This document shows, piece by piece, positions 22,194 through 50,263 of a stretch of 64,000 nt of DNA (the first letter of the stretch is position 1; every line of letters starts with the position of its first letter). The stretch covers positions 12,310,955 to 12,374,954 of the forward strand of contig NC_049991.1 of NCBI RefSeq assembly GCF_000003815.2, given 5' to 3'. The DNA is from Branchiostoma floridae (Eukaryota > Chordata > Leptocardii > Amphioxiformes > Branchiostomatidae). Made by a program: the position numbers and the translations under genes. The notes below the pieces were generated by a model. The model worked only from the letters and a program-made list of their open reading frames with translations, was not told the origin of the DNA and ran no database searches.

Positions 22194-23316
22194 TCACTTC
22201 ACGGGTTTTGACTTGGTTGCTTCGTCGTAAGAAGGAGGCGGCTCTTCGCCGGTCCAGGCGGCGGGGGTGTACGGTGGGAGCACGGGGTTAGTTGGGGCGG
22301 TGGGTGACATCGGCGACGGCCGGTCACCCACGGGAGGGTACGGCACCTGTTCTGTAGGGTGGTTCTCCAGGGAAAATCTGCAACATAAACAAAGAGGCAT
22401 GCTGTTAGACTTTTCGGTTTTACGCAGAATAATTGACTCGCGGCATCGGCTTTATCACGATTAGAACCCCAACCAATCAAAAGAACGTAGATAAACCTTC
22501 AACTTTGTTTTGTCTGTTTAGCCGCAAGTGGGATCAGTCTTCATTGTACATGTTGCATCTACTTTCAAGACAATCTCTGAACTTAAATCTATATCCTACT
22601 TCCGTGGTATGTGAATTTTATTTTTTTTTCGATGCCCTATATTATTGGAGCTTTTATTATCAGATAGTAAACTGGCATTTGCATTTTCGACTCTCTGACT
22701 ACTATGTTGACGAACATATGCTTATCACCTTACAAAAATAGTGAAATTGCTAATCTCCAAGCAGATCCTACGGTGCCATAAGATAGTATCAAAGCTGGCC
22801 AGGTATAGCCGGCTAAGGGAGTCAAACGGGCACCGGAAGTTTGATACTGTACATTACGCACCGTGGATCTGGTTGGAGATTATGAAATACGTCACCTTGA
22901 GTATGAAGAGTAGGGCCAGGCTTGGGCGTGGGCAGGCGCCATGATGGGCCCCTGTGACGTACTAGTACATTTGTAGTAGCAGCTGGAGTAGGGCGCGCTG
23001 TAACCACCTGTCCCGGCACTGTCCTGGTGGTAGTCACCGCCCGTCCCAGGTACTGTGTAGTCCCGCCTGAAATTTGTGTGCCGCTCTGCCACTGAACACA
23101 CCTCACCAGACATATCACGAAACACACGGCCAGCATGAGCGGGCCGATAAACATCGCCGGGGTGATAAACTCCGTGGTGAAGCCTATTATCGTCACGATG
23201 AAGCCTCCTACACATAGAGCAGTGGCGAACAGTGTCTTTACCAGACTCGGGTCCAGTCTCTGAGCGATGGACAGTCCGCTGGTGGCACTCGCATCATTCC
23301 CAGTTGTCGGGTACAT
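22194..23316 (-). CDS. Gene A: two-helix membrane protein with PPxY tail
   Basis: Leftmost member of the nine-gene cluster. Exon 1 runs from the ATG at 23316 to a donor near 22896; exon 2 is 22377-22194, with a TTGCAG acceptor. Residues 27-46 and 51-71 are hydrophobic helices separated by a short polar turn, followed by a Thr/Pro-rich stretch. Exon 2 gives a Pro-rich tail with VPYPPVG, LPPYTP and EEPPPSYDEATKSK before the stop; PPSY and PPYT are WW-domain ligands. An Arg codon split by the intron (R-FSLENHP) matches gene C (R-FSFPDQP). As read, exon 1 ends in phase 1 while exon 2 needs phase 2, so the latter part of exon 1 appears to be in another frame (one that ends AWPYSSYSR). This is an assembly indel, a true frameshift or an unseen micro-exon. 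Function is inferred from motifs only. Confidence 0.75.
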
Positions 23317-24346
23317 GTTTGTTGTCCAAGATTGCTGAGTCGTCTCTGTTATAATAGCTGTGTCATTCGACTACCACTGAAGACTGAGTCACTAGGCATG
23401 TTGGCATTTTACCCACTAATTATGAAATTGTGGCTATCAAAAATCTTTCGAGGTAATGAAACGTAGACCGAGTCTCTAAAACGTTGCAAGTGCACTACAT
23501 GTACACCTATGTCGAACAAGTTGTGGTCGTCCCTGAACATTTGTTCAAACCTGGTGGCACGGCATGTTGGGATATATAGAACCTGTGTACGCAGTCCGGT
23601 AAGGTGACCCGTGAAACTGCCGCAGGGCAGACTGACAGTCAGTACAACCTACTCTTCCAGTTTTCCCCCAAGCTTCTAAAAATATCGGTTTCATCACTGG
23701 GACACGTTTTAGGAACAAAAAAATATATTGAAAAAAATGTTCATGCAGAGCGAGAGCTTTAGAAATATGTGATTTAATTGGTACTACTAGTATTTGTACT
23801 ACTAGCATTGCTCATCAACATAAACTCTCAACATAAATTCTGCAGTTTAGCTTTAGAAGGAAATCTCATAGTCAATATGTCTCTTATCCAAACTCTATGC
23901 TATGTTATGCTATCTATTTTGTCTGTCTAGCTTTGAAGCGTTGTCGTTGAGTCAGACTAACGGAGCTTTCCCTATACTCCCAAACCTGTCCACTGTAATG
24001 AGACATTACGAAACGACCGTTGGATTGCTGAAGTTTGGTCTGTCTGTGAACTTGACTTTAAACAAACATTGTACAATGAGTACCAACCAGTAAGGTGATT
24101 TGTATAGTACATGTATGTAATTTATTATACCGCGTGACGCGTGTGCCACGAGGGCCCTACACGCATGGCCGTAAACGTCTGATAATATCGTCATAAAAAA
24201 AAAAAATCCAGCAGTTGCAAAAACAACTTGAATCACTCTAGACCCTCCTTGGCAGGTATGGAGGCAAATTCTTTCTCATCCGTCGCCATACTGACTACTA
24301 ATATTTTGTAGAGTCACATATCACTAGCAACCGTAACGTCGTAAAA
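23317..24346. other. Intergenic, presumed promoter side of gene A
   Basis: No gene recognised. The sequence upstream of gene A has no clear TATA box at a convincing distance. Short open frames only. Confidence 0.4.
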
Positions 24347-26009: not shown

Positions 26010-26204
26010 TTAAGCCCCCTTTACAAATCAAGAATTTAGCTCGGCCGAGTTGTCAGCGAGCTCTAAATTACGAGGAGGCATGAATCTGATGCCGACGAAG
26101 GAACTCTGCTATTTGTTCGTAGGCATCAGGGCCATACCTCCTCGTAATTTACAACTCGCTGACAACTCGGCCGAGCTAGATTCTTGATTGTAAAGGGGGC
26201 TTAA
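26010..26204. mobile_element. TTAA-flanked palindromic MITE
   Basis: TTAA at 26010-26013 and 26201-26204 brackets inverted repeats beginning GCCCCCTTTACAATCAAGAA-like and running more than 60 bases each (including CTCGGCCGAG and GACAACTCGGCCGAGC). The central spacer is short, so the element is nearly one long hairpin. TTAA duplications are typical of piggyBac and Kolobok-type transposons. It sits 8 bases from the assembly gap, which such hairpins often cause. Confidence 0.8.
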
Positions 26205-26212
26205 AGGTGGTA

Positions 26213-26312
26213 NNNNNNNNNNNNNNNNNNNNNNNNNNNNNNNNNNNNNNNNNNNNNNNNNNNNNNNNNNNNNNNNNNNNNNNNNNNNNNNNNNNNNNNN
26301 NNNNNNNNNNNN
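26213..26312. other. Assembly gap (100 N)
   Basis: Exactly 100 Ns, the usual placeholder for a gap of unknown length. Genes or exons could be missing here, between genes A and C of the cluster. Confidence 1.
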
Positions 26313-28327: not shown

Positions 28328-30695
28328 TTATACGTCGTCACTTCTCTCGTGTATGACGTGCATAACTTCGTCGTAAGACGGCGGCGGATGGACTATATCC
28401 TCGTCCTCTTCTTCAAACACGTCGTCCAGAGTTTCCGACGAAGCTGTGCATGTTTGGTCAGCTGGGGTGTAGGACGGCGGAGGATGAACAATATCCTCGT
28501 CGATGTCTTCTAAGTCTTCCCTCGCAACCCAAGGGTCATAGTCGCTAGTAGCATCGCCAGTGTCTGTGCAATTATCATTGGGAATTTCGACAAGTGTTAA
28601 AACAACGCGTGGAGCTGGGGGTGTCTGCACCGACGGCACGGTCTCTTCCGGGACTTCCTCTTGATGAATTGTCGGTTGATCGGGGAAGCTGAACCTATAG
28701 GGGAGTACACATCGATTTGTGTAACAGATGCTTTGAGGCGAATTAAGGTCATACAATCTAAACGTATCTACATGTAATTACATGCGCGTAGATGCGTAAC
28801 CGACAGGTGACAACAAAGCATTTCTAAACTAAACGATCCCCCCAAGGGCAAACACCCGTTTTTGTATTAAATTGTAGCCGGGTATCCAAAACTATTGTAG
28901 CTAGCTGTAGAGTCTCTTTCGCCTTCTTACCCGAATTTCGCAATTTGTGTAGGAGGACGACAGACAATCGGCAGCTATAACAGTTTTGGATACTCGGCTA
29001 TTGTTTAATGCCGATGTCTATCGCATTTGTGCCCAAGGGAGCAACATACAGCTTTCCCCTTTTGTACGATAAACCCGCTACTTTTGTACAAAGAAAACGA
29101 AAGAGGCCTAGGAAAAGCACGATGTCGACCCTGTAAACAGGAAGCCGAGAAACTAATGTATACGTAATATTGGTGCGGAAACGTATGCGATAATTGAAAT
29201 GCTAGATTACCAAATGCTAGTTTGGACAACAGAAATACTTAACTGTGTTTTGTTTTTAAAATGTTTTTCTTTGCAGTGCTTTCATTATAAAACAACTATA
29301 TAGCTACTGGGAGTATAAAATGCCGATGACGGGTCTGAAGAATATACAAGGACTACTTGCCATTTCAATGTTGAATGACTTTGTTTTTTTTAATCTGGAA
29401 AAACATTTTAGGCTTTCCCCCACGATACTGATTACAAGCAGGCTAAAAATGTCTCGTTTTGACATTATTGATGATATCTGTATTGTTAATTTCCTTCAAT
29501 ATTCTGTCTGATAAAAAGAACGTTTCTTCCCTACTCCGTGAGCAATGATGTTTGCCATTTGGTGTAACGTCATAGTTGACGTAAAAGATGACGCAGATAT
29601 GTAGTTTGCCAGGACCCCCTCCCATGCATGAATGCAATCTAAATCATTAATTGCCTTTGAAGCTTCCGTGGGGGCCAACATTATTTGGGGGAGGGGGAGG
29701 GGCTTTCGAATGTATTGCTTTCTGAGACATGTCTCCATTTTTTAAAACAAATATAACGTTATATCTTTCACAAGTACCGATTGCGGACATAGAATAAAAC
29801 TAAACCATTCGGTTCTTGATTTTCAAAGTAAAGGCTATGTGTATATGGTGATTGTAGGTCAGTTTTGCAGTGTTCGTATCAAATTATCTATCAATTGATA
29901 CGAATATACATGTACAATCAATCTTCAGTACTTACGAATATACACAAGCTGCTAATCCATTCAATGTTAACAGTTACTGTCACCCCGTTCCGAAAGGTTT
30001 TATGGTTTGAAATGCAGGAGAAGCGAAGGTGCATGTGTATACGTCCGGTAGCGTAACAGCCGAAGCTAGCCAAGGACGCACAGCCCCCCTCCCCCATATT
30101 TTTCATTCGTAGCTTACCTGTTTTCATCCTCGTGTACGATCGTATCGTAACTTGGCGGCGGCGAGAAGCTGGCAGGGTCTGGGGAGGCCGGGCCACAGTC
30201 TTCACCTAGTTCTACGTCTATGTTCAAATTGTCATTTTCGTTATTCTGAATATAAAGGTTCCACCCACACGACAGCAACATCAACAATATAGAAACACCG
30301 ATAGAAACTGGTCCGACGATAAGGAGAGGGTCTCGTCGGGCGATGGCTTCGGGTTCGCCGTACCCGTTCGCCGTCATGATCGCTCCGGGTAGAAATATCA
30401 GGAATGCAACGAAGAAGAGTGCCATGGGGCCAGGGTTCTCGCACGGACATCCTCTCTGTGCCCGCTGGCCAAGGGTACCGACCGAGGACAACACCACACC
30501 TTGCCCGCCCTGACGGGAAACGTTCGGCGACGCCAGGCGGCTGAAGTCGTGGCGTAATCGGGCCCTGGCTCGGTAACTCTCGGTTCTAGTCGGTCTACCT
30601 GTCCTCCGAGGTTCGTCTCGTCTCGCTCTCCTTCCATTGGACTGATCGTTGCCGTTGTGGCGTCGCCCTTTTCCCATAATCACACATTCAGCCAC
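28328..30695 (-). CDS. Gene C: two-helix membrane protein with three PPxY motifs
   Basis: Exon 1 is 30695-30118 (donor AACAG|GTAAGC) and exon 2 is 28694-28328 (acceptor CCCTATAG). The junction splits an Arg codon in phase 2 and restores one frame of 314 aa. A second start at 30677 gives MGKGRR, matching MGKGEG in gene G, and is the likelier one. A long Arg/Gly-rich N-terminus (residues 7-90 from the first Met) precedes helices at about 91-109 and 123-143. A PPPSYDTIV motif comes at the end of exon 1, unusual for the family. Exon 2 is acidic and holds DEDIVHPPPSYTPA and, again, DEDIVHPPPSYDEVM, a clear internal duplication. Probable role: membrane-anchored adaptor for WW-domain ligases of the NEDD4 family. 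The role is inference; the structure is seen. Confidence 0.85.
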
Positions 30696-32679: not shown

Positions 32680-34549
32680 TTAGCTTATTTGAGTCACAGA
32701 TTTCACGACGTCTTCGTAAGACGGCGGTATCTCGTCTTGAGCTGCTCGGACGTTATTTGTCGAACTGCAGGATTTCAGCGACAGACGATCCGCTCCTCCG
32801 GGACATTTTACCTCCGTTTTGTCACCACTTTGGGGCTGTTCCAAACGCACAATCAGAGGACTAGGCGGTAGCAGAGCAACGAGATTTCTGTAGGAGAATA
32901 TCAAGAAAAACATCACTAAACGCGTCTGATTTGCCTCTTTTTCTTGCCAACGCACGGCCAGGCTGGATGCTGCAGCGCTAACATATATAAGCGGAAATGA
33001 CACATGGAAAGGATATTAGCAACGCACAGGCCATAAGGGTTAGGAACTACACCTGCTATTGCAAGCCAACTCATTATAATGCTCTGGAGTTGTGAACGAC
33101 GTCTTTCTGGTATTCATGTGTAACACGTTCAGAATTCAAAGTTACTAGTACGTCGCAGGCAGAAAAAGTCATCGAACGTTAACAGGAAATATTTAATAAT
33201 TTCAAAAGTTCTCTGATCCATTGTCGATCGCAGGGAATATCTATTGATAAAATAGAAATAGAAATTCACATTTCAAAGTGACTTATCGATGACGAAATGC
33301 AGATTTAGAGATTGCATAGTCTCTTACAGGCAGAATATCGGCTTCTTTCATCCCTCGGAAAAACATCCAGATCGGGATAAGATGTGTCAATGGAAAGCAA
33401 TTTGTATCTGTTCCCCTCACAGCGGCCAGTAATGCTGATTTAATTATCCCGGAACGTAGAAGCCTTTGATGTGGCTTCTAAACCTCGCCAGAGACCGATA
33501 TTACGTGAAACTTAATATCGGTCGTCCTCTATTTTACATTTAAGCTGAGACAGAATGCTGTGGTTAAGTTGGTTTGCATTAAAAGGAAGGTTTTATCAAT
33601 TTTGTACCGTCTTAGAATCAGGAGGGGCAAAGCCTCTCTGCGTGTGTGAGTAGGAGGGAGATTACTAGCTGCATGTCGACAAGACGGCAATGTTGCAGAA
33701 TTTGATAACGTATTCCAAAGAAGTACTGTGCTTCCCATTTAAAAGAGAGTTGCGGCGGACGCCTAGTGTACGTTGGTTGAAGAGCGCAGCGGACGTGACT
33801 GCAAGATTAATCGCACTGCCTTAGAACGGCGCCGCAACCGCTTGAAAGCTATATGTTTGATTAATCTATCAGTTACATTCCAGTTTTGTGTAATTTTCTC
33901 ATATACCAACAGGTCTCTGCGATCATTACCTTCTCATACACGTACCATTCTTGATTCTCCCCCTTTGACGCGGGTATTGCTGAACATATGAGTCTGAATG
34001 CATCTCAACAGGTAACATGTGCGCAATACCCCCAGGGATCTTACAAAATCGTCAGCAAGGCGACATTTAACACTGGCTAGATAAAAGCCAACAAACAAAC
34101 AAAAAATGCATATATTGTCTTGTCGAACGTAACATTGAATAAATATGAATACTGTCTCTTTACCTTGAAGATAAGGCTGGAGACGGTCCCCTTATCTCGG
34201 CTGGGGATGATACTACTGGCGCTAAGGATGCAGAGGAAGCCACTGTGACAAGCTGGCTCTCTCCTATAGCTATGTCATGCTCCCCGTCACCTCCTCCTCT
34301 TTTCCACTTGGCCATACTCAAACAACAGTTGACTCCCGTCTCCCCCAGTATGGCTATTAGGCCTAGCGCGATCATAACTTTGCCTCCCACGGAGGAGAGA
34401 TAATCATTCTTCAGCACGAATATTCCTCCGGCTAGGAACAGGATGCCGAAGAAGGACACCCAGCCCGCAAAATGTTTGGGTGCGTGGTTTCTCCAAACGA
34501 AGCGGTGATCCTCTTGACGAGGCGACAAACAATGCTGAGACGGCTGCAT
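32680..34549 (-). CDS. Gene D: two-helix membrane protein with PPxY tail
   Basis: Exon 1 is 34549-34164 (donor TTCAAG|GTAAAG) and exon 2 is 32887-32680 (acceptor CTCCTACAG). Phase-2 junction; the product is 197 aa. The N-terminus MQPSQHCLS matches MQPPPSYLQ in gene D2. Helices lie at about residues 28-46 and 52-76, with FLAGGIFVLKNDYLSSVGGK between and NCCLSM at the end of the second; the Cys pair is a plausible palmitoylation site. Exon 2 has LLPPSP early and ends IPPSYEDVVKSVTQIS. It is 64-75 percent alike to D2 by eye over the hairpin, and lies in mirror orientation to it. Confidence 0.85.
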
Positions 34550-34837
34550 TTTCCCACAGAAACGTCCAGTTCACTCCAGAAATCACGCCGAACAGGACCC
34601 AGCCTTGCCGAGGTTGGATGAACACTGATGTTGTTGTTGAGCTGAAGAAGATTTTTTCAAAGGACGTGTGTTGCGCCGGGCTGGCCAATGCACGATATAT
34701 CATACGCCTGTATTCAGCCACAGTAATCAAAGGATATATACTAGAATGTTCTGTGAATGCTAAAAAGATGTCAAAGATGCCTTGACGTAAGCTACAATAT
34801 AGTTGAAGCAGAAATCACAAAAAATCGAAACATCACA

Positions 34838-35101
34838 ACGGAGGTAACGTTAGATTTGATTTATCAAATACCATATCCAGTCTGTTTATCTGTCACTTTT
34901 AATAATGCTACCGGCAAATTGCAAGCCTCAGATAAAAAATGTATACACATAAAACTGTGAGATTCATGATACATGTAGTTATTTTATTTTGCGATGTATA
35001 TTATTTGATTAACAAAAGATAACAATTCTAACAAATATATCTTTATTACATTATATTAGAATTACAAAATTGCAATCATCTGTATTGTCAAAACCGACTA
35101 G
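34838..35101. repeat. Duplicated noncoding segment, copy 1
   Basis: From ACGGAGGTA to AAACCGACT, this segment matches 35654-35895 in the same orientation. Shared phrases include GGCAAATTGCAA, ATTCATGATAC and AGAATTACAAAATTGCAATC. It lies between genes D and B, downstream of gene B. Confidence 0.75.
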
Positions 35102-35653
35102 CAGGAATAAATTTTGCATTCATGAAAAATGACACAAGTTACTAAATAACAACCTTTATCATAAAGATAAAATGCGGCGGCGGTGTAAGAATAACATTTA
35201 GCCGCGCAAATTCTTTAGAAGGCCTAGCAGAACAGGTCATTTGACTGTAGATGTCTACTGTTATTCTTTCTGATAGAAAAGATTATCGGAATGATACATA
35301 GGCTACACATAAGCTCAAGAAACAAATAAACACAGCATTTTTCCTTCTGTATCATATAGTTTTGTATAGCATTCTAATGAATGTCTAGCTTTAGCACATC
35401 TAAGCATTTTGGAATGCAAGGGTACACACAAATACGATAAATTAAATAGGTACAAAATATCTAATCTATAGATATACTCAATGTTTCTACGTACATTATG
35501 GGGATAATTCCTTCTCTTGAGGTAGTACTGTATCTATTTGAATGACAAGTGGGTTTGTAATCTTAGTAGAAATGTGTATTCTTGTGTCCTTTATTGTTTA
35601 ATTGTTTTAAAAGGTGTGTTTCTTTTCACCTCATAATGAGGGAACAATACAAA

Positions 35654-35895
35654 ACGGAGGTAGATTTAATTAATCAAATATAATTTTTAGTATGTTTATC
35701 TCTTACTTCCAATGTGCACCGCGGCAAATTGCAAACCGACGAAATATACAGATAAAAGTGACATTCATGATACTTATTTCATTTTACGATCTACATTATA
35801 TAACAACAATATATAACAATTTTCAAATATTTAAACCATTAAACATGTAATAGAATTACAAAATTGCAATCATCTGCATTGTCGAAACCGACTTA
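35654..35895. repeat. Duplicated noncoding segment, copy 2
   Basis: Second copy of the 34838-35101 segment, flanked on both sides by TAATGAGGGAACAATACAAA (35636 and 35893), itself a short direct repeat. It begins just downstream of the stop codon of gene B, so it may be part of its 3' UTR. Confidence 0.75.
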
Positions 35896-35944
35896 ATGAG
35901 GGAACAATACAAAATCTCTGAGAGGTTATATAATGTAATTTAAA

Positions 35945-37047
35945 CTATTTTTTCTCCACAGCATCCTCGTAAGACGGAGGGGGCGGCTCGTTGTTAGTAT
36001 CAGGGCGGGGTGGTGGTGCGTCTGGAGCTGGTATGACTGGGTACTGCTGAGACCTGGCTTCGTGGTACGTGGGGAGATCGGCTGGAAAAGTAGCGCCCAC
36101 TCCGCCATTACTCGTGCCAGGGGAGAAAGAGTCTCTTGTGTTGGTAGTAAAAATGGTCTGGGGATACAAGCTGAATGGAAAGAGTACAGAAAGTCAGTCA
36201 ATACGTTCGTTACCAGAATTGATTGGCCACTGAAGTCAAGCACAGTTCGAAATGGTCTCGTTACAAGAGAGGGCTATGGACACGCTAGCTGCTGACAAAT
36301 TAAGATAGCCGATGAACAAGCGACTCCACCATGCTAACAGTTGTGTTCTAGTTACCTATAGCTATGTAAAGGGTGGCCTATATTGCATGGTTCGTGTCTT
36401 ACAGTATGCACCATCACCGTTATGGTGTAAATTGTTACACACGTACCTGTGGCAATGTTTAATTAAGTAACGGTAACTTACATTCACAAATATGATAGTC
36501 CCATTAGCCCATATACGTTACCGTGGTAGAGGAACGGCAAGTCTAATTATCGATTTGGTCAAACGAATACATGTATAACGCTCAGGCTAACTCACCTTAA
36601 TGACGACCTATCCCCGTATCAATATTTTTATGTACATTCAGGATATTGTGTAGTTTATTTGGCACATTGGGCACCATAGTAGGTATATTCAGGACATAGT
36701 GTATCCATTTGGCAAACTGTGGATCCGTACTACATACGTACAGCCATTTTGAAGTGTTGATAAGATACGTACTTGAGAAGTGTGGTAGGTGGCACCCCAG
36801 GTCGCCGTTGGTTGGCTCTTCTCCTAGTTTGAATCTGCATGCTCACACAACAGTTGAACACAGGATAGCAGATCAAGACTGGCACCGGCAGCACTGCTAA
36901 TACTACCCCTATCTCCTGCGGTTCCACAGTCAATGCAAGCGTCAGACCCAAGGCAAACCATATCACTGCTGCAATGAACACGTAGCGAGCATATCGTAGT
37001 CGCTTATCGTCTTCTTCTAAGGCCTGAAATGTGCGCCACCCGATCAT
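35945..37047 (-). CDS. Gene B: two-helix membrane protein with PPxY tail
   Basis: Exon 1 is 37047-36773 (donor CTCAA|GTACGT) and exon 2 is 36170-35945 (acceptor TTCCATTCAG). Phase 2; the product is 166 aa. It starts MIGWRTFQALEEDDKRLRYA, close to the N-terminus of B2. Helices lie at about residues 21-40 and 45-66, ending FNCCVSM, then a short Arg-rich patch. Exon 2 starts LYPQT, has LPTYHEA (an LPxY WW-ligand variant), a DAPPPRPDTNNE linker and NEPPPPSYEDAVEKK at the end. Gene B2 is its closest relative and is transcribed divergently from about 1.1 kb away, so the two may share a promoter region. Confidence 0.9.
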
Positions 37048-38179
37048 TTGGGGAGGTCAACTGTTGTACCGTCTATTAAACGGTTACCTCTTCTTTCGCT
37101 CATGTAACCTGGAATCCAGTCTACTGCTGGCTGGGCCTACCGTACTTAGTGCAGGCTTTGTACGGGGCCAGGGAAGCTCCCAGCCGCTTAGGTAACCGGC
37201 CACACCCGGTAGAATTTTCACGGGGTTAGACTTAGCCTAGTGGGAGTTAATTTGCCCGCCAGCAGTTTGAACAAGGCACTAGTATGCAACGCTGGTTGCG
37301 CCGAAGGCTCTCTTGTTGGCCAAAGTTATGTTGAAGACTAATGGTAATACATATATTTGACTAATCAGTGATCATCAGTTGATTGTTCAGTGATCTTGAC
37401 GTCGCCGAAGTTTGTTGTTACAAACACCTGTTTGCCTACTTCCGGGTTCAAACATAATGGTCTCTCATAGCAGTTTGTTAAGACCAAGACACAAAGCCGT
37501 ACTCAAGATAAGAGTCAAGTATTCTCATGCTCCTTGGTTGGGGATTCTTCTTGGAGTGTACGCTACCACACACATTGCCAAAACTCATAGGTCATGATGT
37601 CTTGGATGATTGGTCAAATAGCACTAACAACAAGGGCACAGAAAATTGCAATAGACCTAGATTTCGCAAGGAGTCCTCACAGTTTATGCATAGAACGCAT
37701 GAGTTACCCTCCCCCTCTGTGATTGTGTACACTTTTTAAGTCGACCCATTCTTTGTTATTGATTCTACTAACTGTCTTTAGCAGGCCAGGATGTTTCGTT
37801 AGGTATGAGATTAGGTATGAGATTCCATGACTCGTGATAGTCTCAGTCAATGTCATGAACATTAGAACTGCAATGTGAGACTCAAGGCGGGAAGAAAAAC
37901 AGGTACGGTACGTGTAGCACACTCTAGTATCTCAGATCAGGGTTTTCAGGAGAACTGACGTTTTATGCTTCCTGGTCCACCGTGTTACGTGATCTTGAGG
38001 ACAACGGTAAGCTTGAAGAAAACCTGCCGGGCACATTGAACAAGTAAGAACGTTGAATAACCACCCGGGACGATACTACCGTGACATGTAACAGAGCATT
38101 CTTGGGGTCACTAATCTTGGATACCAACGGTAGACAGCCCATTCTGTTCAGCGACAGCTAGCTACCTGTGGTAGCAACA
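37048..38179. promoter_or_regulatory. Shared intergenic region of divergent genes B and B2
   Basis: This 1.1 kb lies between the start codons of two paralogous, divergently transcribed genes. I see no clear TATA box or palindromic operator-like element. A common regulatory region is inferred from geometry only. Confidence 0.4.
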
Positions 38180-38894
38180 ATGTCCACAATCATTCAATGG
38201 CGCTGTTTCGCGCCCACAGAGGAAGACGACCAGCGGCTACAGTATGCTCGCTACGTGATGATCGGTGCGGTGATTGCTATCGCCATTGGCCTGGTGCTGT
38301 GTATTACCGTCAACGTAGCAGGGTTGGCTCTGGTCCTGTTGGCACTGGTGGTCATATTCGCTGTGATCATGCTCAACTGTTATGTAAGCATGAAGAAGAG
38401 GCAAGAAAGGCTGGACCGGCACCACCGACCACCTGAGGCTGCAGCGGTACATACTGAGTACGTATTCAACAGTTCCGCATAATCTTTGACAGGTCAGATA
38501 CTAGTAGTATTGACAAGGGCGTGATTCAGTTACCCAGTCTCACACAGAATGTTTGTGTCTTATTGTCATCAGTAGTCACTTGGACCAAGTATCATTGCTT
38601 CTACATTTGTATCAAACTAACATGTAACGTTATTGTAACCGTTCATTCTTTCCGCTCAGTTTGTATCCCGAGACCACTACTCCCATCAACACCGGAGATT
38701 CGTGGCTTCCGGATACGAGTAATGGCGGATTGGATGCTGCTTCAGTACAAGCCGATCTCCCCACGTACCACGAAGCCGGGTTCCAGCAGTACCCAGTCGT
38801 ACCTGCGCCAGACGTTCCACCACCCCGACCTGTTGCCGACAACAATGAACCGCCCCCTCCGTCGTACGAAGACGCTGTGTCATCAGGGAGATAG
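38180..38894 (+). CDS. Gene B2: two-helix membrane protein with PPxY tail
   Basis: Exon 1 is 38180-38457 (donor ACTGA|GTACGT) and exon 2 is 38660-38894 (acceptor CGCTCAG). Phase 2; the product is 170 aa. It starts MSTIIQWRCFAPTEEDDQRL and matches gene B from EEDDxRLxYARYV onward. Helices lie at about residues 25-44 and 46-67, ending LNCYVSMKKRQ. Exon 2 has DLYPETTTP, ADLPTYHEAGFQQYPVVPAP, a PPPRP linker and NEPPPPSYEDAVSSGR. Donor sequence, split codon position and nearly every tail motif are shared with B. The intron is only 202 bases. The start is the first in-frame ATG; a GTG lies 12 bases upstream. Confidence 0.92.
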
Positions 38895-40069
38895 AAAACG
38901 TCGGTTGCAATTTTCCCCCTAACACTTTTCATATGTTTTCCACGTACAACAATTTTCCACGTACAACGATTAAATGTGAAGTTTTGAATTCCGTTTCTTA
39001 TATTGCTGTTATCGAAGAAAATGTTCTGTAAATAATTTGCTTCGTTGCCGTTCGGATTGCAATGACAAAACGCCCCAGCAACTTCGGTGCGAGACTGTTT
39101 GTTGACTAGTAATGTACGATCATAGGTCAAGGTAAGGTTATGCAAATGCCATCAAACAGCGCTAGCTTCACCTTGGCTACAGCGGAAACCTATCCCCCTC
39201 TCATTCTCAACACTCCGGATCCCTTCCACTGGAGCCAGCGACCCCGCTGCGACTACTCAGCGACCTAAGAGTTACCTACAGATCTAGAGAACCTAAGAGT
39301 TACCTACCAGCGACCTACAGATCCGACACATTTCATACATGAAGAACGAATTTCTATGTTTTGTGTGCTTGGTTGTATTTTAAATCATACTTTTCTATCT
39401 TGCATCATATTCCACTTCCTGTGGAATATGATTTTGATTTCTACATGGCCGCTCAGTGATAGCCGTCTAGTGGGAAGTGAGAGTATACCTTAATGTACAT
39501 AAATGAAGACAAGACAATGATCTTGTTAATCTTGTTCTTAGTGTGGCTACTTAGGGTTATATATATATATTATTGTAAGCAGATCTACATTTTGGTCACG
39601 TTTGATCATGTTTTCATGTTATAAAGGGAAATAAATGTACACGTATATGTGGGAAGGTCAGTCTAATTCATTTGCCTCTAAAGACAAGCCTTCGCTATTA
39701 AGATAATGAAAGATTTCCTTCTTTATTGCGCAATCTTTAATGGCAATGGAATCGTTCCTCGGTTGTTAAGGTAACACACTCAGGAATGAGCTTACTCGGA
39801 TTGGATTTATTGTACAAGAACATCCAATAAATCTGTTTCTCTGTGCTGTACAATATCGACTGGCAATTTTTGAAATATAAATACCTACATTAGGGCCTCC
39901 CATCTGGATAAGTATATCAGGCGTATAGTATATCGTGCGGCGGACAGCCTGACACGACGCTCAGGCACGAATTTGTAGCTGAAAAACAACATCTGTGGTG
40001 AATCCAACATCGGCAGAGATGGGGCCCTGTTCAAAGCAATTTTTGGATCGTTGCTGAGAGGATGTGAAG
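38895..40069. other. Intergenic stretch between B2 and D2
   Basis: Mirror counterpart of the D-B spacer (34550-35944), but I see no obvious residual similarity by eye. A possible poly(A) signal (AATAAA at about 39650) lies in it. An open minus-strand frame at 38630-39145 is the shadow of gene B2. Confidence 0.4.
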
Positions 40070-42030
40070 ATGCAGCCGCCCCCGTCCTACCTCCAGAATT
40101 ATAACCTCTCCTCTCTGCTGACGGGAGGTGTGGAGGACCCGCCTGCTCTGAGGAACGACGTGCGGAGACAATGGGCCGGCTGTGTGTCCTTCATGGGCGT
40201 ACTGCTACTCACGGGCGGAATATTCGTACTCAAGGAGAATTTCTCTGCCGTAGGAGGGAAAACGATGATAGCTATAGGCCTGCTGGCCATACTGGGAGCC
40301 ACCGGAGTCAACTGTTGTCTCAGTATGGCCCAGTGGAAGGGTGAAGATGATCGGAGAGGTCGTGAGATGGGGCAGGGTCAGCTGGCCACGGCTTCCGCAG
40401 CATCATTCGCTCCAGCATCCTCCAGAGCCAGAGCTGAGATGATAACGGGACCGTCTCAACAGTGTTTGTCAGGGTAAGGCGCTCGTCGTGACTTACGTTC
40501 ATACGCATGGCACAGCAGGGAAATGCGTCATGCATATTCTACCTGTTGAAATATATCTATAGACCCTTGTACCTTTCGGTGTGCCGCAATTTCCATGCAT
40601 ACCTCACAAGGGCTGAACCAGGAATGGTCGCGAGAGCACAGGGGTATGCGCTTATCGTAGCGATGGGAAATTAAAAATTAATGAGTTAGTCAGCCACACA
40701 GCTTTCAAAACTGTGCATTGACCTCAAGCAAGGACGTTATATCTGATATAACGTCCTTGCCTCAAGTAAAGATGTTAGATATGTGGGATGGATTAAGAGC
40801 ATTTGTCAAGAGATGCACATGCAACATTAGTTTCTGATGGGTTTGAGATATAGTCGTTCGCAACAAGTGATGCATGGCGACATTTAACCAGCAGTCTTCC
40901 TTAAATTGACGCAGGAGTTGCCTACAAGGATTTATTGCCAATGATATCCGCACATTTAGCAAACGCTATCTACGCTGAAGCAGGATGTCCATACTGTGTC
41001 TGAATAATAGTAAATCGTAGTAGTTGCCAGCAAAACTCAACATCAAACGAATGATGGGTTGTAACCAACGTCAGTCTTGGGCAGAGCATGGTGATCTTCA
41101 TTGATAATTGGCCATGGGGGCAAGACACAAGCACGTTAGAAATATAATCATCGTGAATAATTCCTACCTAGATCTTGTATCTAATCTGTATTCTGCTACC
41201 AGGTAGAGTCTACCATTGCAAAAAAGTTCAATTACCTGACCGCAAATAGCCTGTAGCTGAGCATGAGTGAGAAGTAGTTACTCCATAATATACAGCATCC
41301 GAAGTTCTGGTGAGTCGATAGCTTAGGGCTCACTTTCCAATTCGAATTCGTACCAACTAACGACTTCTAGATTGGAGAGATAATCACATCAGTCGCAGCC
41401 GCGTCCAGAAAAGGTTGCGTACAAATTACTGGCCACGTACCTTTATGTGGTTTTCCGGGAGTTGAAAGAATCCGTAATTTTAAATGTTTTGCCCAAGGGC
41501 AACCGCCCAATCTCAATCACATCTCCATAAGTCATTACCGACCTTTTAAACAACTCTTTCATTTTAACATTCTCATCAATAATCACAAATCTGAGGGAAA
41601 ATTATGGCCTATGGAATTCTGCAGGTAAACTGATCGTCTTTTCGTTTGTATGTATAAATTGATCGTGTATAAATTGATCGATTTTTTTCCATTTTCACCA
41701 ACTACGATGTTAAAGATAAGCCTGAGGAAAAATATGGCCCGTGGTATTCTGCAGGTAAATTGATCGTCTTTTTCTATGTATTCTCTCCTTAGAGCCGACC
41801 TTGCGGGACAACCACCCATTCCCTTGTACCTCTGCGAAGACCCGGCACCCCAATATGACGACAGACCAATAGGCCCGCCACCTAAATACCCCGGAAGAGA
41901 AGACCCTCTTGATCAGGCACAATCCTTCAGCTCCACAAGTAACCTTAGCTGCCCGCCGGACGACCTGCCACCGCCGCCATCTTATGAGGACGTCGTGAGA
42001 GCCACACAGTCCAGACAGACTAGTCTGTAA
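40070..42030 (+). CDS. Gene D2: two-helix membrane protein with N- and C-terminal PPxY
   Basis: Exon 1 is 40070-40473 (donor TCAGG|GTAAGG) and exon 2 is 41793-42030 (acceptor CTCCTTAG). Phase 2; the product is 213 aa. The N-terminus MQPPPSYLQNYNL adds a PPPSY motif absent from gene D. Helices lie at about residues 36-54 and 61-82, with LLTGGIFVLKENFSAVGGK between and NCCLSMAQWK after, nearly the same as D. Exon 2 has GQPPIPLYL, GPPPKYPG and DLPPPPSYEDVVRATQ. With PPxY at both ends, and both termini predicted cytosolic, one chain could bind two WW domains at once; that is inference. Confidence 0.9.
40728..40760. repeat. Perfect 33-base palindrome in the D2 intron
   Basis: Arms GCAAGGACGTTATATC and GATATAACGTCCTTGC are exact inverse complements with one base between. 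CCTCAAG is repeated directly at both outer borders (722-728 and 760-766 in the 40 kb block), overlapping the arm ends by one base, as expected for a miniature insertion with target duplication. Confidence 0.8.
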
Positions 42031-44052: not shown

Positions 44053-45333
44053 CTATTGTTCTTTTACGGGGCTGACTGCCTCCTCATACGGCGGGGGAGG
44101 GACTTGGTTGTAAGTGGCGGTGTTGCAGACATCTTGCATCGTTTGTTCCTGATCCCGACTTTCCAGTGGCTGTGAGGTGTCTGGGTACGAGAGTGGCATT
44201 TGTAGTTCTGCCCCTGGGTACGAGGCTGTCTGTCCATTGCAGATAACGTCATACTGAGGAGGCTCCTCTTCAACACGCGTGTAAGGTGGTAACGTAGCCT
44301 GTGGGTCGTACCTGCAATAATGGGGGTAACAGACAATTACTGTCTACACAATTTGGTTTTAAGGACTGACCAAAATCTTTGTACAATAGGGGTCGGGCGA
44401 AATGAGAAACGACGTTGTGTTTTTTTTTTTTATAATAAGATGATGAAAATGTATTCTTTGCACAACAGAATAAGCAGAAAGGAACGAAGATCGTCCAAAA
44501 CCAATAATCAGAAAAAATTCTCACATCCCAGCAAACCTCCCCGATCGACCCAAACAATATGTAACAGCAAAGACGACGTTGGGTAACCCCAAACTGGAAG
44601 ACAAGGCCACCAAGACGACCATTTCGACGACAATTTAAAGTTATGTCTGTAAACATGATATGTATAGACAATTGTTCAATTGGGGGCTAATACATAAGAA
44701 CACTGCAAAGCAGATAAACCGGATATGCTACTTTTCTTAAGCCAAACATAGTACTGTAGTGAACAAGGCGAGGAGAGAGACGTCGTGTAGTCTTAAGCCT
44801 GTGTTACGTTATGAATATCTCTATTATCGACAAGTCAGTATCAACTTTTCGAACTGCTGGGGAAAAAGATAGAACTTGTGATGGTAACCTCTTTAATAGT
44901 ATTTTCATGTGGGTACATGATCATGATGGACAGGATCAAACATAAGCCATAAACAAAATTAACAAATGATCAGGCATGAGTTTTTCGGTTCGGATCAATG
45001 TACAAATCAACCCAAAATGCAGTTCACATACCCCAGCAGTGTCGTCGACGGCTCTTCAAAATCACGAATCCCCACTGTTACGCACTGTTGTCCCGGGCGG
45101 GCCCCGTGAAGAGCCTTGGTGCGACAACAACACTCGAACAGGATCGCACCGATGAACAGCGGCGTCGCAACACCCACCATAATTTGCGATGCTACGGTGG
45201 AGTATCGATATATCAGAATCACCAGGACTGAGAACAAAACGAAAGTCAGGGCGAAGATACATCGTTTTAGTCGTCTTTTCTTGTTCTCGTCTGACTGATT
45301 CAGATCTGTCGATAGCACCGACAGAGCTAGCAT
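44053..45333 (-). CDS. Gene E: two-helix membrane protein with PPxY tail
   Basis: Exon 2 is 44311-44053 (acceptor TTATTGCAG), with the frame RYDPQATLPPYTRVEEEPPQ to VPPPPYEEAVSPVKEQ; it has no internal start codon, so it is easily missed. Exon 1 ends at 45032 (donor CTGGG|GTATGT), phase 2. The upstream frame is open to 45567, but the ATG at 45333 (MLALSVLSTDLNQSDENKKR) best matches the short polar N-termini of B, B2 and F, giving 186 aa. Starts at 45438 or 45567 cannot be ruled out. Helices lie at about residues 25-42 and 47-68, ending FECCCRT, a triple-Cys version of the family's juxtamembrane Cys motif. The tail carries LPPY, PPQY and PPPPY. Closest relative: gene F. Confidence 0.85.
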
Positions 45334-46398: not shown

Positions 46399-47436
46399 CT
46401 ATTTTGCAGAATTCACTGCCTCCTCATATGAAGGTGGTGGTTGGTAATCCTCTGTTGTAACACCAGTAGGGTATAGGTACGTGCTCCTGTTACGGTACTC
46501 CTCTGGGTCCTGTGGGTACCTAGGTTGAGGCTCAGGGTACCCCACTATTGGTGGTAGCTCGTGGTACGGAGGTGCTTCCTCATACTGTGGTAGGTCCTCT
46601 CTACTGGTGTAGGGTGGTAACGTAGTCTGAGGGGTGGGATTGCTGGGGAAAGGCGAAAAGTAAGAAAAAAAGATCGATGTATTACAACTCTCAAGAACTG
46701 TGATGTTCATGCAGGAAGGAAAATCAACGTGAATAAATGAATGAATAACATTAAATGTTTTCCTATTTCGTTTATGCCTCTCTCTCACAAACACAGTAGG
46801 CAGACGTAGCGGTTTCCTCTCTATACATCTGCTTGAACATTATGTAAATACAAGGGTCCTTCAGAGAGGATTTTAGCCCAAGGGATTCAGGAGCAAACAT
46901 ACAGTATGTATACCAACACACCATAACACAGTCTTTGATAAGAGCAAGGCGTGCGTTCAGTTGTACATGTAATTAGTATAACTGCGTAGTACAGTGGTAC
47001 ACGGATGTTTGTCGGGATGTGCATGTGTTTACGTCTGACTCTGACGTTGTACATAACAAAGATTGTTTCCGGTCCACCTACTTTTGCAATAGAAAGACAT
47101 CTTACCTACAAGCTGGCTCGATCCCTGGTAGAGAGTCCTGCATGTCCTGTGGACACACAGCAGCGATTCGCGACTCCCGGTCGCTGTTTCGTCTACAAGT
47201 TTTGTTTACACTCACACAACAGCTGACACACCAACAAGAAACACCAGCAGCGCGGTGAAACAGACGATGATTTGTCCCGCGATCATGGAAACCCTGCTCA
47301 TGACGATAATCCCGGCTGTGAACAGAGTCACTGTTCCTATGATCATCAGACATCGCGTCCTGCGCCTCTTGGTGAAGGCCTCCTCCGCCTCCTCTTCGAT
47401 TCTCTCAACCCTCACTAGTGATGATAGAGGAATCAT
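46399..47436 (-). CDS. Gene F: two-helix membrane protein with PPxY tail
   Basis: Exon 1 runs 47436-47106 (donor TGTAG|GTAAGA) and exon 2 is 46642-46399 (acceptor TTTCCCCAG). N-terminus MIPLSSLVRVERIEEEAEEA, helices at about residues 29-46 and 51-70. The read-through frame then stops just after VFLVGVSAVV. In the neighbouring frame the family's motif continues as SCCVSVNKTCRR and runs open to the donor. Reading one GT fewer in the GGTGTGTCAG string gives VGVSCCVSV and also restores the phase-2 junction. So either an assembly or polymorphic dinucleotide change, or a disabled copy. Exon 2 is intact: NPTPQTTLPPYTSREDLPQY, APPYHE, and YQPPPSYEEAVNSAK at the end. It matches E in QxTLPPYT and the acidic stretch after it. 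Confidence 0.75.
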
Positions 47437-49212
47437 GTTCCTTCACTTTACCTGGTATCTGCAGGTGTGACAGTACTGGGAAGGATACGAAGTCTGCGCG
47501 TGAACAATAAAGAGCTAGAGAATGGCTTGACATCAGCGTATGTCCGTGGCCAAACCGACACAGCTCGGACTAGCAGTTGAAAACTTGGCGCCAGTTCGCC
47601 ATCATGGATTCCACATTCCGGCAATGCGCAGTCAGCTAGCGCTGCAGCCCCGCAGGTTCATAGGCGGTCTCTGTGCCTGAGTGGAACAGAACAGCTGCCA
47701 GATTCTCTCAGCTATGTCCATGAAACACTGGGTTCACATCTTCAAGACTTGGAGACCGAATACCCTACCTACCGTGAAGTGTTATGAAGTTATGTAAGGA
47801 GATTTAGGGCTAGCTGCCGACAGTGCCATCCCCACCCTGGTCAAAGTTCAGCTTGCCGAGGCGGGCCCACGCTGAGCACGGGGGTGGTCAGGATGTCAGA
47901 TTAAAACTGCTTGACTGGCCAAGCATATCAAAACATACGTTTAGAGTATACATCTATTCTGTTCTAGGTAAGCTGTTCATAAGTGAAACATGAAGTAAAA
48001 ATGGCTGGTCTATCAGTCAAGTGACAACGTTATAACAACAAGTGTGACTGGGCGATACCACATTTTTGAATTAAATGTGTCTCGTAAAGTTCTTTACTTG
48101 CATTGTACTATGCTGTATATTGTTCAGTTATCAGGGTTAGCTCTGAAATTTATAATAGACCTCGACAAGGTGGGTAGCCCTGGTTGTATGTTTTATACAG
48201 TCTAATAAATCAAATCAAACATGTAGGGGACCTTGTATCTTTATGTAGGCCATGTAAAGTCTGAAGGCCGGGTTTTGCCAACAGCGCTGTTTTCGCTCAA
48301 TGTCAAGCAAAAGTAGGCGGACTGTTTTGAAGACAAAGCATGACAAGTGAAGGTGCGTTGTAGTATAAGCAAGTGTTGTATTATCAAATACAGTTATTCA
48401 AAACGTTAGAACTGTCTTTTATATGACGAGTGAAGTAGAAAATATTATCGCTCCATCATTTGAACACATAATGATCACATATTGGTGTTTTATACTATAC
48501 TTTAGGTAATACTTTACTTTTGGTAATACTATACATTAGGTAACCTTCTCTTCTGTTTTCCCATATCGACATGTTGGTACAACAGACGCTTGCACATGTA
48601 AAACAAACAAAAGGTAAAGTAAACAAGACGTTTAAACACACTCCATTGTGGAAACAAGTGGCAAAAGTTTGCATAGTTGACTGCATAACGTATGTTTTTA
48701 TTATGATAGATGGCAGATACATATACACTACGATATAAGTTTTTAAATACAAGGTCCTTAGGTATATTGAAGCGTTTTAATGAAGAATAATTTAACAATT
48801 AAAGCTAATATAAAAAGTTAGTACGACAAAAAATACTCATTCGACAATATTGATACCAAGGTGTCTTGGCGCTAGGATTCGTGTGGCATCAATCAATATG
48901 AAGCCACTCTCTAGGTGACATATTAGTTGTGTTTTTACCAATGGCAATACTAGAGCGCGCACAGAGTAATATCCGTTAGACGTGTATATATCGTTAAAAT
49001 TAAGTTTATCGGTCTCTCGGATTGTGTGTTATATTCATATCTAGCAGATGCGATTCCGGACTAATTCAGGGCCATTTGATGATGAAACAAGCGCGTAAAT
49101 AAACAATAATTCATAAAGTCTGTAATATTTCATAACCGATCTCTGTTCCTATACAAATCGGAACTTAGTCTTTCGGTCACAACAACGACTCACTCGAAAA
49201 GAACTCTCTTCG
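47437..49212. other. Intergenic stretch between genes F and G
   Basis: No gene recognised. The region upstream of F includes GC-rich sequence to about 47720, then AT-rich DNA. No extra family member is visible. Confidence 0.45.
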
Positions 49213-50263
49213 TTAGTTTTTCGGGTTCATAGCGTCCTCATAAGATGGGGGAGGTGGGTACGCAGGGCTAGGGTAGGTCAGCGGGACTGGGTACTGCGGT
49301 GGGGGAGACAGGGCGTAGTCCTGCGGTGGTACTCCAGACGGTACTCCTGGGTACGGCTGTGGTACCGATGGTAGTTCAGGGTAACCAGGTGGTTGTACTA
49401 TACCAGTCGGAGTTGGACCTGGGTATTGTGCTGGGTATGCCGGAAAACCAGTCATGAAACCGTATTGATCATGATTCGGGACTGGAGCGGCGACTTCGGG
49501 AGAAGGAGTTGGATATCTGAGGAAAGGGAAAAAAGAAGTATGACAAGTGGGTAGCATGCGTCGCAGTATCAAACCCAGTACCAACTCAAGGAATTCTTCA
49601 GGCTCAGCCCGTGCATATTGTAAATTTGTCATGGTTAAGTGATTTGTCACAAGCGCTGAGTAAACACCCAGTCCAAGTTGCAACGAGAAACTAGAATTAT
49701 CATGACTGAATGTTTAAAAAAAATACACTTTTGATTTACCGAAGTCTGCGTCAATATCCGTGAATATTCATTGCTGGTTACTTTGCTAGTTATTAGTTAG
49801 TTTTTTTGCCATAACCTTACCCGATAGTCGGCGGTGTTGTGGTCACGGTCTGCAGGCCACCTGTCCGTGCGCGCAGTGGTTGTGTGTTCACGGCCACAGT
49901 CTTCCTCATGTGCACGATGGAGAACGCCAAACTAACGAACACCATCCCTGCTCCCGTGATCATGATGATCCCCCAGATCATGGACCAAGACGTGAAGACA
50001 TAAACTCCCGACAGAATGACGACAAAGGCCAGGAAGGACATCAGGCGGGCCATGTTGATCCGCCTGTCCAGAGCCGGGTTCCCGGTGGCTGGTGCCCTGA
50101 ACATAGCGGTCCCCCCGCCACCCCCGCCCCGGTGATGTGCGCGCCGATGCCGCCGGGCCCGACCCCGACGTCCGCCTCCACCCTCTCCCTTCCCCATGGC
50201 GGCTATAAAGTGGCTCAGATAGATGTTTGTCTCGCACGGGTTCACGCCTGAGAGCGGAACCAA
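49213..50263 (-). CDS. Gene G: Gly/Arg-rich two-helix membrane protein with PPxY tail
   Basis: Exon 1 is 50263 (or 50197) to 49821 (donor TATCGG|GTAAGG) and exon 2 is 49516-49213 (acceptor CCTTTCCTCAG). Phase 2. The start at 50197 (MGKGEGGGG) is preferred because gene C also has MGKG; that gives 226 aa. The N-terminus is rich in Gly, Arg and His (residues 5-30), then helices at about 51-69 and 72-95. The juxtamembrane Cys pair of subfamily I is absent. The tail, about 100 residues, is Pro/Tyr/Gly-rich (YPTPSPE, YPGPTPTG, QPYPGVPSG), with SPPPQYPVP and YPPPPSYEDAMNPKN. Such tails resemble those of known small membrane adaptors with PY motifs. Rightmost member of the cluster. Confidence 0.87.

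What the first reader, a model, noticed from the sequence alone, without database searches (positions are those of the whole stretch)
22194..50263. Nine-gene cluster of two-helix membrane proteins with WW-ligand (PPxY) tails
Nine genes in 28 kb share one design: a membrane hairpin in exon 1, a Pro-rich tail in exon 2, and a C-terminal (P)PPxYEDAV-like motif. Sequences outside the hairpin and tail motifs are divergent, so the array is old and functionally constrained at those points. PPxY binding to NEDD4-family WW domains is established; a dedicated, locally expanded set of membrane adaptors for such ligases is my inference. Vertebrate TMEM51-type proteins have a similar layout, but homology is uncertain. 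This is the strongest candidate for an undescribed system here.
Basis: partly seen in the sequence, partly recalled or inferred. Interest (0 to 1): 0.85.

Follow-up and report, generated by a model that had tools for sequence, protein, structure and literature searches.

The report
Array of PPxY-tailed membrane hairpin genes
A 28-kb stretch of what looks like a lancelet genome carries nine genes for small membrane hairpins whose tails all end in the kind of short motif that ubiquitin ligases can grip, so it is probably a locally expanded set of membrane adaptors or self-sorting cargo for such ligases; genes of the same layout lie elsewhere in that genome.

Summary
Nine two-exon genes lie in 22194-50197: a two-helix hairpin exon, a phase-2 intron, and a Pro-rich tail exon with PPxY[DE][DE] within 16 residues of the stop. 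The window has nine such terminal motifs, all here; 100 shuffled windows average 0.02. Genome-wide, PPPxY[DE][DE] occurs 33 times (2 for the reversed pattern), 8 of them here. Seven hairpins (D-J) are alike beyond their hydrophobic pattern; A and CB fit dispersed genes better. D-E and F-G are an inverted block duplication.

The layout is not confined to this locus: nine more hairpin exons were found on C3, C14, C15 and C150, four of them traced to a tail with a terminal PPxY. No Pfam family passes its cut-off; TMEM174/171/51 match only weakly and inconsistently, so that homology is undecided.

Best reading: N-in/C-in membrane anchors presenting PPxY/LPxY motifs (8 of 9 have at least two) to WW domains, probably of NEDD4-family ligases, as Ndfip-like adaptors or Sna3-like self-sorting cargo. 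Binding, transcripts and conservation in other species were not testable.

The parts
22862..23316 (-). gene A exon 1 (hairpin); donor uncertain (22861 phase 2, 23101 phase 2, or 23106 phase 0)
22194..22377 (-). gene A exon 2, tail ending EEPPPSYDEATKSKPVK
30118..30677 (-). gene CB exon 1 (hairpin plus a PPPSY); apparent stop is part of donor CAG|GTAAGC; start codon uncertain (30677 or 30425)
28328..28694 (-). gene CB exon 2, two further PPPSY motifs
34164..34549 (-). gene D exon 1 (hairpin), paralogue of G
32680..32887 (-). gene D exon 2, tail IPPSYEDVVKSVTQIS (only PPxY/LPxY of D)
36773..37047 (-). gene E exon 1 (hairpin), paralogue of F
35945..36170 (-). gene E exon 2, LPTY and PPPPSYEDAV
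38180..38457 (+). gene F exon 1 (hairpin); weak phase-2 donor chosen to fit
38660..38894 (+). gene F exon 2, LPTY and PPPPSYEDAV
40070..40473 (+). gene G exon 1 (N-terminal PPPSY and hairpin)
   Evidence: AlphaFold helices 25-55 and 60-109
41793..42030 (+). gene G exon 2, PPPKY and PPPPSYEDVV
45032..45333 (-). gene H exon 1 (hairpin)
44053..44311 (-). gene H exon 2, LPPY, PPQY, PPPPYEEAV
47216..47436 (-). gene I exon 1 (hairpin)
46399..46642 (-). gene I exon 2, two LPxY and PPPSYEEAV
49821..50197 (-). gene J exon 1 (hairpin); start codon 50197 or 50104
49213..49516 (-). gene J exon 2, three PPxY, ends PPPPSYEDAMNPKN
32680..42030 (.). inverted block duplication: D-E (minus) mirrored as F-G (plus), centre near 37.6 kb
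   Evidence: the four blastn matches with E<1e-4 between the blocks are inverted and collinear, best 1e-49; D-G 45% and E-F 52% protein identity

Best explanation
The array is a local expansion of PPxY-tailed membrane hairpins. Each protein has two helices with a hydropathy-defined luminal loop of 1-14 residues and, most likely, both ends in the cytosol. A Pro/Tyr-rich tail of about 80-170 residues carries PPxY[DE][DE] near its end, usually with further PPxY or LPxY motifs. Most likely the tail docks on WW domains of NEDD4-family HECT ligases: multi-PY members (8 of 9) could recruit and disinhibit the ligase at the membrane as NDFIP2 does, while single-PY D would need a partner, like TMEM127 with SUSD6. 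With almost no luminal domain, selectivity would have to come from the hairpin, by choosing compartment or cargo. Shown: anatomy, relatedness of seven hairpins, local expansion, similar genes elsewhere. Outline only: codon-level constraint in three pairs. Inferred: topology in cells, WW binding, the ligase as partner, cargo.
For: Anatomy and chance controls. PY counts, short loops, and more Lys/Arg on both flanks than in the loop in 6 of 9 (D, E, F, G, H, J). Relatedness: with target and sister gene left out, 2 (D), 0 (G), 2 (E), 0 (F), 0 (J, no sister), 0 (H) and 31 (I) of 1000 segment-preserving shuffles reach the real score (for D, G, E, F, J; for H and I); with H kept in the profile I scores 0 of 1000. 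0 of 13 unrelated hydrophobic hairpins reach the top 5% with the seven-gene model. Best acceptor phase 2 in 9 of 9, best donor in 7 of 9. Inverted block duplication. NG86 dN/dS 0.16-0.47. G's hairpin is modelled as two helices with low-confidence flanks, mean pLDDT 65. Precedents: NDFIP2 needs multiple PY motifs, TMEM127 uses a single C-terminal PPxY (PMC12720080, abstract and passages); Sna3 has two TM domains and a C-terminal PPAY that binds Rsp5 (PMC2171029, abstract and passages).
Against: No binding, expression or localisation data. PPxY also binds non-ligase WW proteins. The motif is not special to hairpins: of the 25 other PPPxY[DE][DE] places, 9 have a strong TM helix (mean hydropathy 2.0 or more) in the same ORF and two more a single-TM exon upstream, so it marks a general tail type. 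L054/L056 has lost it. YN00 dN/dS is near 1 for two of the three exon pairs it could solve. The charge pattern is one-sided in A and I and absent in CB.
Confidence: 0.55

Rival explanations
1. Self-sorting cargo: the PPxY only brings the ligase to the protein itself, which is ubiquitylated and sent to multivesicular bodies, as for yeast Sna3. The proteins are not adaptors for other cargo.
For: Sna3 has two TM domains and a C-terminal PPAY needed for its own sorting. Single-PY member D fits. All nine have at least one cytosolic lysine.
Against: Nine divergent copies, mostly with several PY motifs, are more than self-sorting needs (inference); CB has a single cytosolic lysine by the count.
Confidence: 0.2
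2. The WW partner is not a NEDD4 ligase but a WW scaffold such as YAP, MAGI, KIBRA or WWOX; the hairpins anchor a signalling complex at the membrane.
For: PPxY is a general class-I WW ligand (established knowledge); nothing in the sequence picks out the ligases.
Against: None direct. PY-bearing membrane proteins with ligase roles are the better documented precedent.
Confidence: 0.13
3. They are counterparts of vertebrate TMEM174/TMEM171/TMEM51: two-helix regulators of transporter endocytosis whose C-terminal tail binds the transporter.
For: TMEM174 has two TM domains and 243 residues and at least two exons (PMC9012787, passages); its C-terminal part is needed for NPT2A endocytosis (PMC13252570, a preprint, passages). 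Weak Pfam matches: TMEM174 to H (0.049), CB (4.6), L039 (0.58), the L058/L014 gene (0.88); TMEM171 to the L014 tail (0.078); TMEM51 to part of a C3 hairpin exon (0.069). In the scan of nine PPxY-tail ORFs, the eight not known to be hairpin genes hit none of the three models.
Against: None reaches the curated cut-off (best 13.7 of 27 bits). The matches are not stable: the L039 hairpin alone no longer hits TMEM174, CB exon 1 alone hits nothing, and the longer version of the C3 exon no longer hits TMEM51 but TMEM100 (0.07). Family searches of the genome gave nothing over cut-off for PF15029, PF15345 or PF15471. The preprint calls the TMEM174 C-terminus extracellular, though an abstract in a listing puts both ends inside (PMC3820833). 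PPxY, PY motif and NEDD4 do not occur in the main text of either TMEM174 paper searched.
Confidence: 0.22
4. The terminal Y[ED][ED] is a phosphotyrosine/SH2 or endocytic signal rather than a WW ligand.
For: Acidic residues follow the Tyr in all nine; V at +3 in D, G and CB also fits YxxPhi.
Against: PP before the Tyr is invariant in nine of nine; 8 of 9 carry further PPxY/LPxY.
Confidence: 0.07

Closest known systems
NDFIP1/NDFIP2 (canonical Ndfip adaptors of NEDD4-family ligases)
   Same: Membrane protein with several PPxY/LPxY motifs; NDFIP2 has two PPxY and one LPxY, the mix seen in H.
   Different: NDFIPs have three TM helices and PY motifs before them (recalled); here two helices and a C-terminal tail. 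No NDFIP family match in Pfam at E<=10.
TMEM127 / SUSD6
   Same: TMEM127 ligase binding depends on a C-terminal PPxY.
   Different: TMEM127 has one functional PY motif and more TM helices (recalled); SUSD6 is single-pass with LPxY.
Yeast Sna3
   Same: Two TM domains, C-terminal cytosolic PPxY.
   Different: A family of plants and fungi; the Pfam scan of the nine listed no such family.
TMEM174, TMEM171, TMEM51 (vertebrate)
   Same: TMEM174 has two TM domains and at least two exons; weak, unstable Pfam matches to some of the genes here.
   Different: No match above cut-off.
IFITM/dispanin (CD225) family
   Same: Small proteins with two membrane segments that occur in gene clusters; IFITM3 has a PPxY (recalled).
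   Different: No CD225 hit at E<=10 for any of the nine; the PPxY is C-terminal here, N-terminal in IFITM3 (recalled).

Membership tests
One paralogous family (the nine with each other) | hairpin similarity beyond hydrophobic pattern, D to J | tested here: met
   With target and sister left out: D 2, G 0, E 2, F 0, J 0 of 1000 shuffles; H 0, I 31 of 1000. Controls: 0 of 13 unrelated hairpins in the top 5%.
One paralogous family (the nine with each other) | hairpins of A and CB fit the same family | tested here: inconclusive
   Against the seven: 80 and 307 of 1000. Against dispersed genes plus each other: 0 and 0 of 1000; against all others: 3 and 25 of 1000. With a dispersed + A + CB model 1 of 13 unrelated hairpins also passed (1 of 500 shuffles).
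One paralogous family (the nine with each other) | same intron phase and place | tested here: met
   Best acceptor phase 2 in 9 of 9, best donor after TM2 phase 2 in 7 of 9; A and F donors chosen to fit.
Wider family with dispersed hairpin genes | sequence link between the seven and the dispersed hairpins | tested here: inconclusive
   Seven-gene profile: L036 198, L039 33, L054 166, L058 226 of 1000. Profile of all others: L058 3, L039 6, L036 82 of 1000. Layout and mostly phase-2 donors agree.
Ndfip-type ligase adaptor | PPxY/LPxY motifs on the cytosolic side | tested here: met
   1-3 PPxY plus 0-2 LPxY each; two or more in 8 of 9. The cytosolic side is inferred from charge, clear in 6 of 9.
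Ndfip-type ligase adaptor | binds WW domains and disinhibits the ligase | not testable with these tools
   Needs pull-down and ubiquitination assay.
NDFIP1/2 | sequence family membership | tested here: not met
   No such family among Pfam hits at E<=10 for the nine; the tool's filters drop most matches above about 0.1.
TMEM174 (PF15029) | score over curated cut-off | tested here: not met
   Best 13.7 bits of 27 (H); own genome nothing over cut-off.
TMEM51 (PF15345) | score over curated cut-off | tested here: not met
   No hit among the nine; genome search best E 1.99, below cut-off; best 13.3 of 25.5 bits for part of a C3 exon, absent with the longer exon.
TMEM171 (PF15471) | score over curated cut-off | tested here: not met
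   12.4 of 27 bits for the L014 tail; genome search below cut-off.
IFITM / CD225 | CD225 domain | tested here: not met
   Absent from the Pfam results for the nine at E<=10.
Sna3 family | two TM domains and C-terminal PPxY | tested here: met
   Layout only.
Sna3 family | sequence family membership | tested here: not met
   No such family among Pfam hits for the nine.

The most novel reading that the evidence does not exclude
A lineage-expanded, modular set of membrane adaptors: the tail exon (ligase-docking, usually multi-PY) is kept while hairpin exons diverge to pick different membrane cargo or compartments, giving one or a few NEDD4-family ligases a repertoire of membrane targets. Hairpin and single-pass genes with phase-2 PPxY tail exons across the genome would be parts of one such repertoire.
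Probability: 0.22. Interest if true: 0.68.

Novelty: new variant of a known kind. Interest (0 to 1): 0.45.

Why it matters
PY-motif membrane adaptors are known one by one (NDFIP, TMEM127, SUSD6, Sna3). A tandem, diverged set with invariant PPxY tails would be a natural experiment on how hairpins choose cargo for one class of ligase. It may also offer an invertebrate relative for poorly placed vertebrate TMEM proteins such as TMEM174, a regulator of phosphate transport, and makes that homology directly testable with lancelet sequences.

Tried and rejected
Pfam scans of the nine and their relatives at E<=10 gave only sub-threshold matches, many to bacterial or viral membrane families. SPC12 to the A hairpin (0.0029, 18.1 of 23.6 bits) and DUF7544 to F (4.5e-05, 23.3 of 27 bits) are treated as hydrophobic chance matches. 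NCBIfam on three of the nine gave nothing near its cut-offs. The PDB profile search gave one weak match, a zinc-uptake membrane protein at E 0.053. hhalign between clades gave low E-values, but had no control and was not relied on; the shuffle tests replaced it. Best places of PF15029 and PF15471 in the own genome were read: L009 shows no hairpin; L059 has two hydrophobic segments but no PPxY tail after them in the fetched flank, and failed as a control hairpin; L060 is low-complexity with an N run. L057 (PF15345) was not read. Rfam and tRNA scans of the window found nothing. No fold search was run, because a two-helix hairpin matches too much. Flank ORFs: five scanned in Pfam, one weak Prp18 match (E 0.1) that a PDB search did not support.

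Literature: no listed paper joins these genes with PPxY. The ten searches: 'amphioxus + PPxY + transmembrane' 0 papers; 'TMEM51 + PPxY' 0; TMEM174 20 of 53 listed; five-term PPxY/NEDD4/TMEM search 20 of 32 listed; TMEM171 12 of 92; 'Branchiostoma / WW domain / PY motif' 15 of 374; 'amphioxus + Nedd4 + ubiquitin ligase' 5 of 5; TMEM51 8 of 136; six-term search 4 of 4; 'two transmembrane / PPxY / gene cluster / lancelet' 3 of 3. The library is open-access only. Passages were read from PMC12720080, PMC2171029, PMC9012787, PMC13252570 and PMC8509885; all other papers were seen only in search listings.

This weakened I (31 of 1000), strengthened the phase result (acceptors 9 of 9, donors 7 of 9), and with the unstable Pfam matches lowered the TMEM rival from 0.25 to 0.22.


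Full report
What is there. The window lies at contig C13:12310955-12374954 of a 513-Mb genome. Between 22194 and 50197 are nine genes, here A, CB, D, E, F, G, H, I, J. Seven are on the minus strand, F and G on the plus strand.

Gene structure. Each gene has a hairpin exon and a tail exon. The best-scoring acceptor of the tail is phase 2 in 9 of 9 (for eight, for CB). The best-scoring donor downstream of TM2 is phase 2 in 7 of 9; in A and F a phase-2 donor was chosen to fit and is not the best one. CB looks at first like an intronless gene plus an orphan tail. Its apparent stop codon is the TAA inside a strong donor CAG|GTAAGC (11.2, best in that exon), which joins in phase 2 to the tail at 28694. 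All nine tails carry PPxY[DE][DE] near the end; P, P and Y are invariant.

Chance. PPxY[DE][DE] within 16 residues of a stop occurs nine times in the window, all in the cluster; 100 windows shuffled in 2-base blocks average 0.02, maximum 1. In the whole genome the DNA pattern for PPPxY[DE][DE] has 33 matches, the reversed pattern 2; 8 of the 33 are in this array (the ninth tail, D, has only two prolines), against about 0.002 expected for even spacing.

Are they one family? BLASTP links D-G (45% identity), E-F (52%), H-I (30%) and, more weakly, several others. I tested the hairpins alone with profiles that left out the target and its sister, against 1000 shuffles that keep helices and loops as segments. 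D 2, G 0, E 2, F 0 and J 0 shuffles reach the real score; H 0 and I 31 with both H and I left out; with the sister kept in, H and I are 0 and 0. Thirteen unrelated hydrophobic hairpins, tested with 500 shuffles each, all stayed outside the top 5% with the seven-gene model. A (80 of 1000) and CB (307 of 1000) do not match the seven. They do match a profile of dispersed genes plus each other (0 and 0 of 1000), and less so a profile of everything (3 and 25 of 1000). That kind of dispersed model let one of 13 unrelated hairpins pass, so this is moderate evidence.

History and constraint. D-E and F-G are mirror images: of 11 blastn matches between the blocks, the four with E<1e-4 are inverted and collinear; among the weaker ones one is direct and one is clearly off the diagonal. 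So an inverted block duplication made these two pairs, and H, I, J are same-strand neighbours. dN/dS by NG86 is 0.37, 0.34, 0.47 for the hairpin exons and 0.38, 0.34, 0.16 for the tail exons of D/G, E/F and H/I. YN00 failed on three of the six and gave 0.38, 0.82 and 1.02 on the others; dS exceeds 1 in five of six by NG86, so this supports purifying selection only in outline.

Protein design. Two helices with a hydropathy-defined loop of 1-14 residues. Lys/Arg are more numerous on both flanks than in the loop in 6 of 9 (D, E, F, G, H, J), on one flank only in A and I, and not in CB (2, 2, 0 before, in and after), which suggests cytosolic ends for most. AlphaFold with seven window sequences gives helices 25-55 and 60-109 for G exon 1, pLDDT 78-89 per ten-residue block over residues 31-90 and low elsewhere, mean 65. 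PPxY plus LPxY motifs: A 2, CB 3, D 1, E 2, F 2, G 3, H 3, I 3, J 3.

Not a lone cluster. Of the 25 other PPPxY[DE][DE] places, three are tails with a compatible hairpin exon upstream: L036 (C14), L039 (C15) and L014, whose hairpin lies in L058 on C3. Nine others have a strong TM helix in the same ORF. L025 and L026 (C13:5.46 and 5.48 Mb) have a single-TM exon with an 11.5 phase-2 donor. The remaining 11 were not resolved; most were read only within about 1.5 kb on each side, three only on the upstream side over 5 kb. Protein searches added L054 on C15, whose tail exon ends without the PPxY, L062 and L065 on C3 and L063, L064, L066 on C150; L065 and L066 were weak matches (E 0.02 and 1.2). L065 has a hairpin, a phase-2 junction and a PPPAYNEIVQA tail in one locus. 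So four dispersed genes (L036, L039, L058/L014, L065) were traced to a PPxY tail; tails of L062, L063, L064 and L066 were not found in the fetched flanks and not sought further. Best donors after the hairpin are phase 2 in 7 of these 9; L039 and L058 have a better site in another phase. By sequence the link between the seven and these hairpins is weak: the seven-gene profile gives L036 198, L039 33, L054 166 and L058 226 of 1000, a profile of all others L058 3, L039 6 and L036 82 of 1000. A common origin of the whole set is therefore likely from layout and junction, not proven.

Known relatives. No Pfam model passes its cut-off. TMEM174 recurs weakly (H, CB, L039, the L058/L014 gene), TMEM171 for the L014 tail, TMEM51 for part of a C3 exon. 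In the scan of nine PPxY-tail ORFs the eight not known to be hairpin genes hit none of the three. Against this, the hits vanish or change with the stretch given: the L039 hairpin alone and CB exon 1 alone miss TMEM174, and the longer C3 exon hits TMEM100 instead of TMEM51. This is a lead, not membership. The six-frame genome searches with the three models give nothing over cut-off.

How it probably works. Precedent supports two mechanisms for such a layout. NDFIP2 needs multiple PY motifs to bind and activate WWP2, whereas single-PY TMEM127 and SUSD6 act as a pair. Yeast Sna3, with two TM domains and a C-terminal PPxY, is itself sorted with Rsp5. The array members mostly carry several PY motifs, which favours the first. 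The hairpin has practically no luminal part, so recognition of cargo or compartment would have to lie in the helices. WW binding, identity of the ligase and cargo are inference.

Limits. No other animal genome could be searched, so conservation and absence elsewhere are open. No transcripts were available. Coding exons upstream of the hairpin exon cannot be excluded, and start codons are guesses for CB and J. The 100-N gap at 26213-26312 could hide sequence between A and CB. The genome searches score only the best candidates, so the count of dispersed genes is a lower bound.

Noticed in passing
window 30114-30123: The stop codon closing the CB hairpin ORF is made by the donor itself, so a transcript that keeps the intron would still encode a short PPPSY-bearing isoform; isoform control by intron retention is possible.
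   Followed up: no
L054 / L056 (C15:3.874-3.875 Mb): A 77%-identical hairpin paralogue of L039 whose tail exon has an expanded GAVPHLPAAVQP-type repeat and ends at PPPPC, without the PPxY: a natural copy that has lost the motif.
   Followed up: partly
L025, L026 (C13:5.46 and 5.48 Mb): Two oppositely oriented single-TM genes: TM exon, 11.5 phase-2 donor, best acceptor phase 2, tail with SYSPPPSYDEVVK. A phase-2 PPxY tail exon is thus found behind single helices too, which would fit exon shuffling.
   Followed up: partly
L022-L024 (C12:6.919-6.921 Mb): Three closely related tandem single-TM ORFs within 2 kb, each with repeated DPPSY motifs and a terminal PPPPSY(D/E)DALNMT.
   Followed up: no
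L062, L058, L065 (C3:15.610-15.636 Mb) and L063, L064, L066 (C150:18.7-25.7 kb): Two further local groups of hairpin exons (LGPIIFAVG / IGPVLFGIG type), several followed by an acidic stretch and a phase-2 donor.
   Followed up: partly
window 61348-61662 (-): ORF with a weak Prp18-domain match (E 0.1, below cut-off) around WPIGLTSGHKINLGF; a PDB sequence search gave nothing. Possible flanking gene or a relic.
   Followed up: partly
window 26213-26312: 100-N assembly gap between genes A and CB.
   Followed up: no
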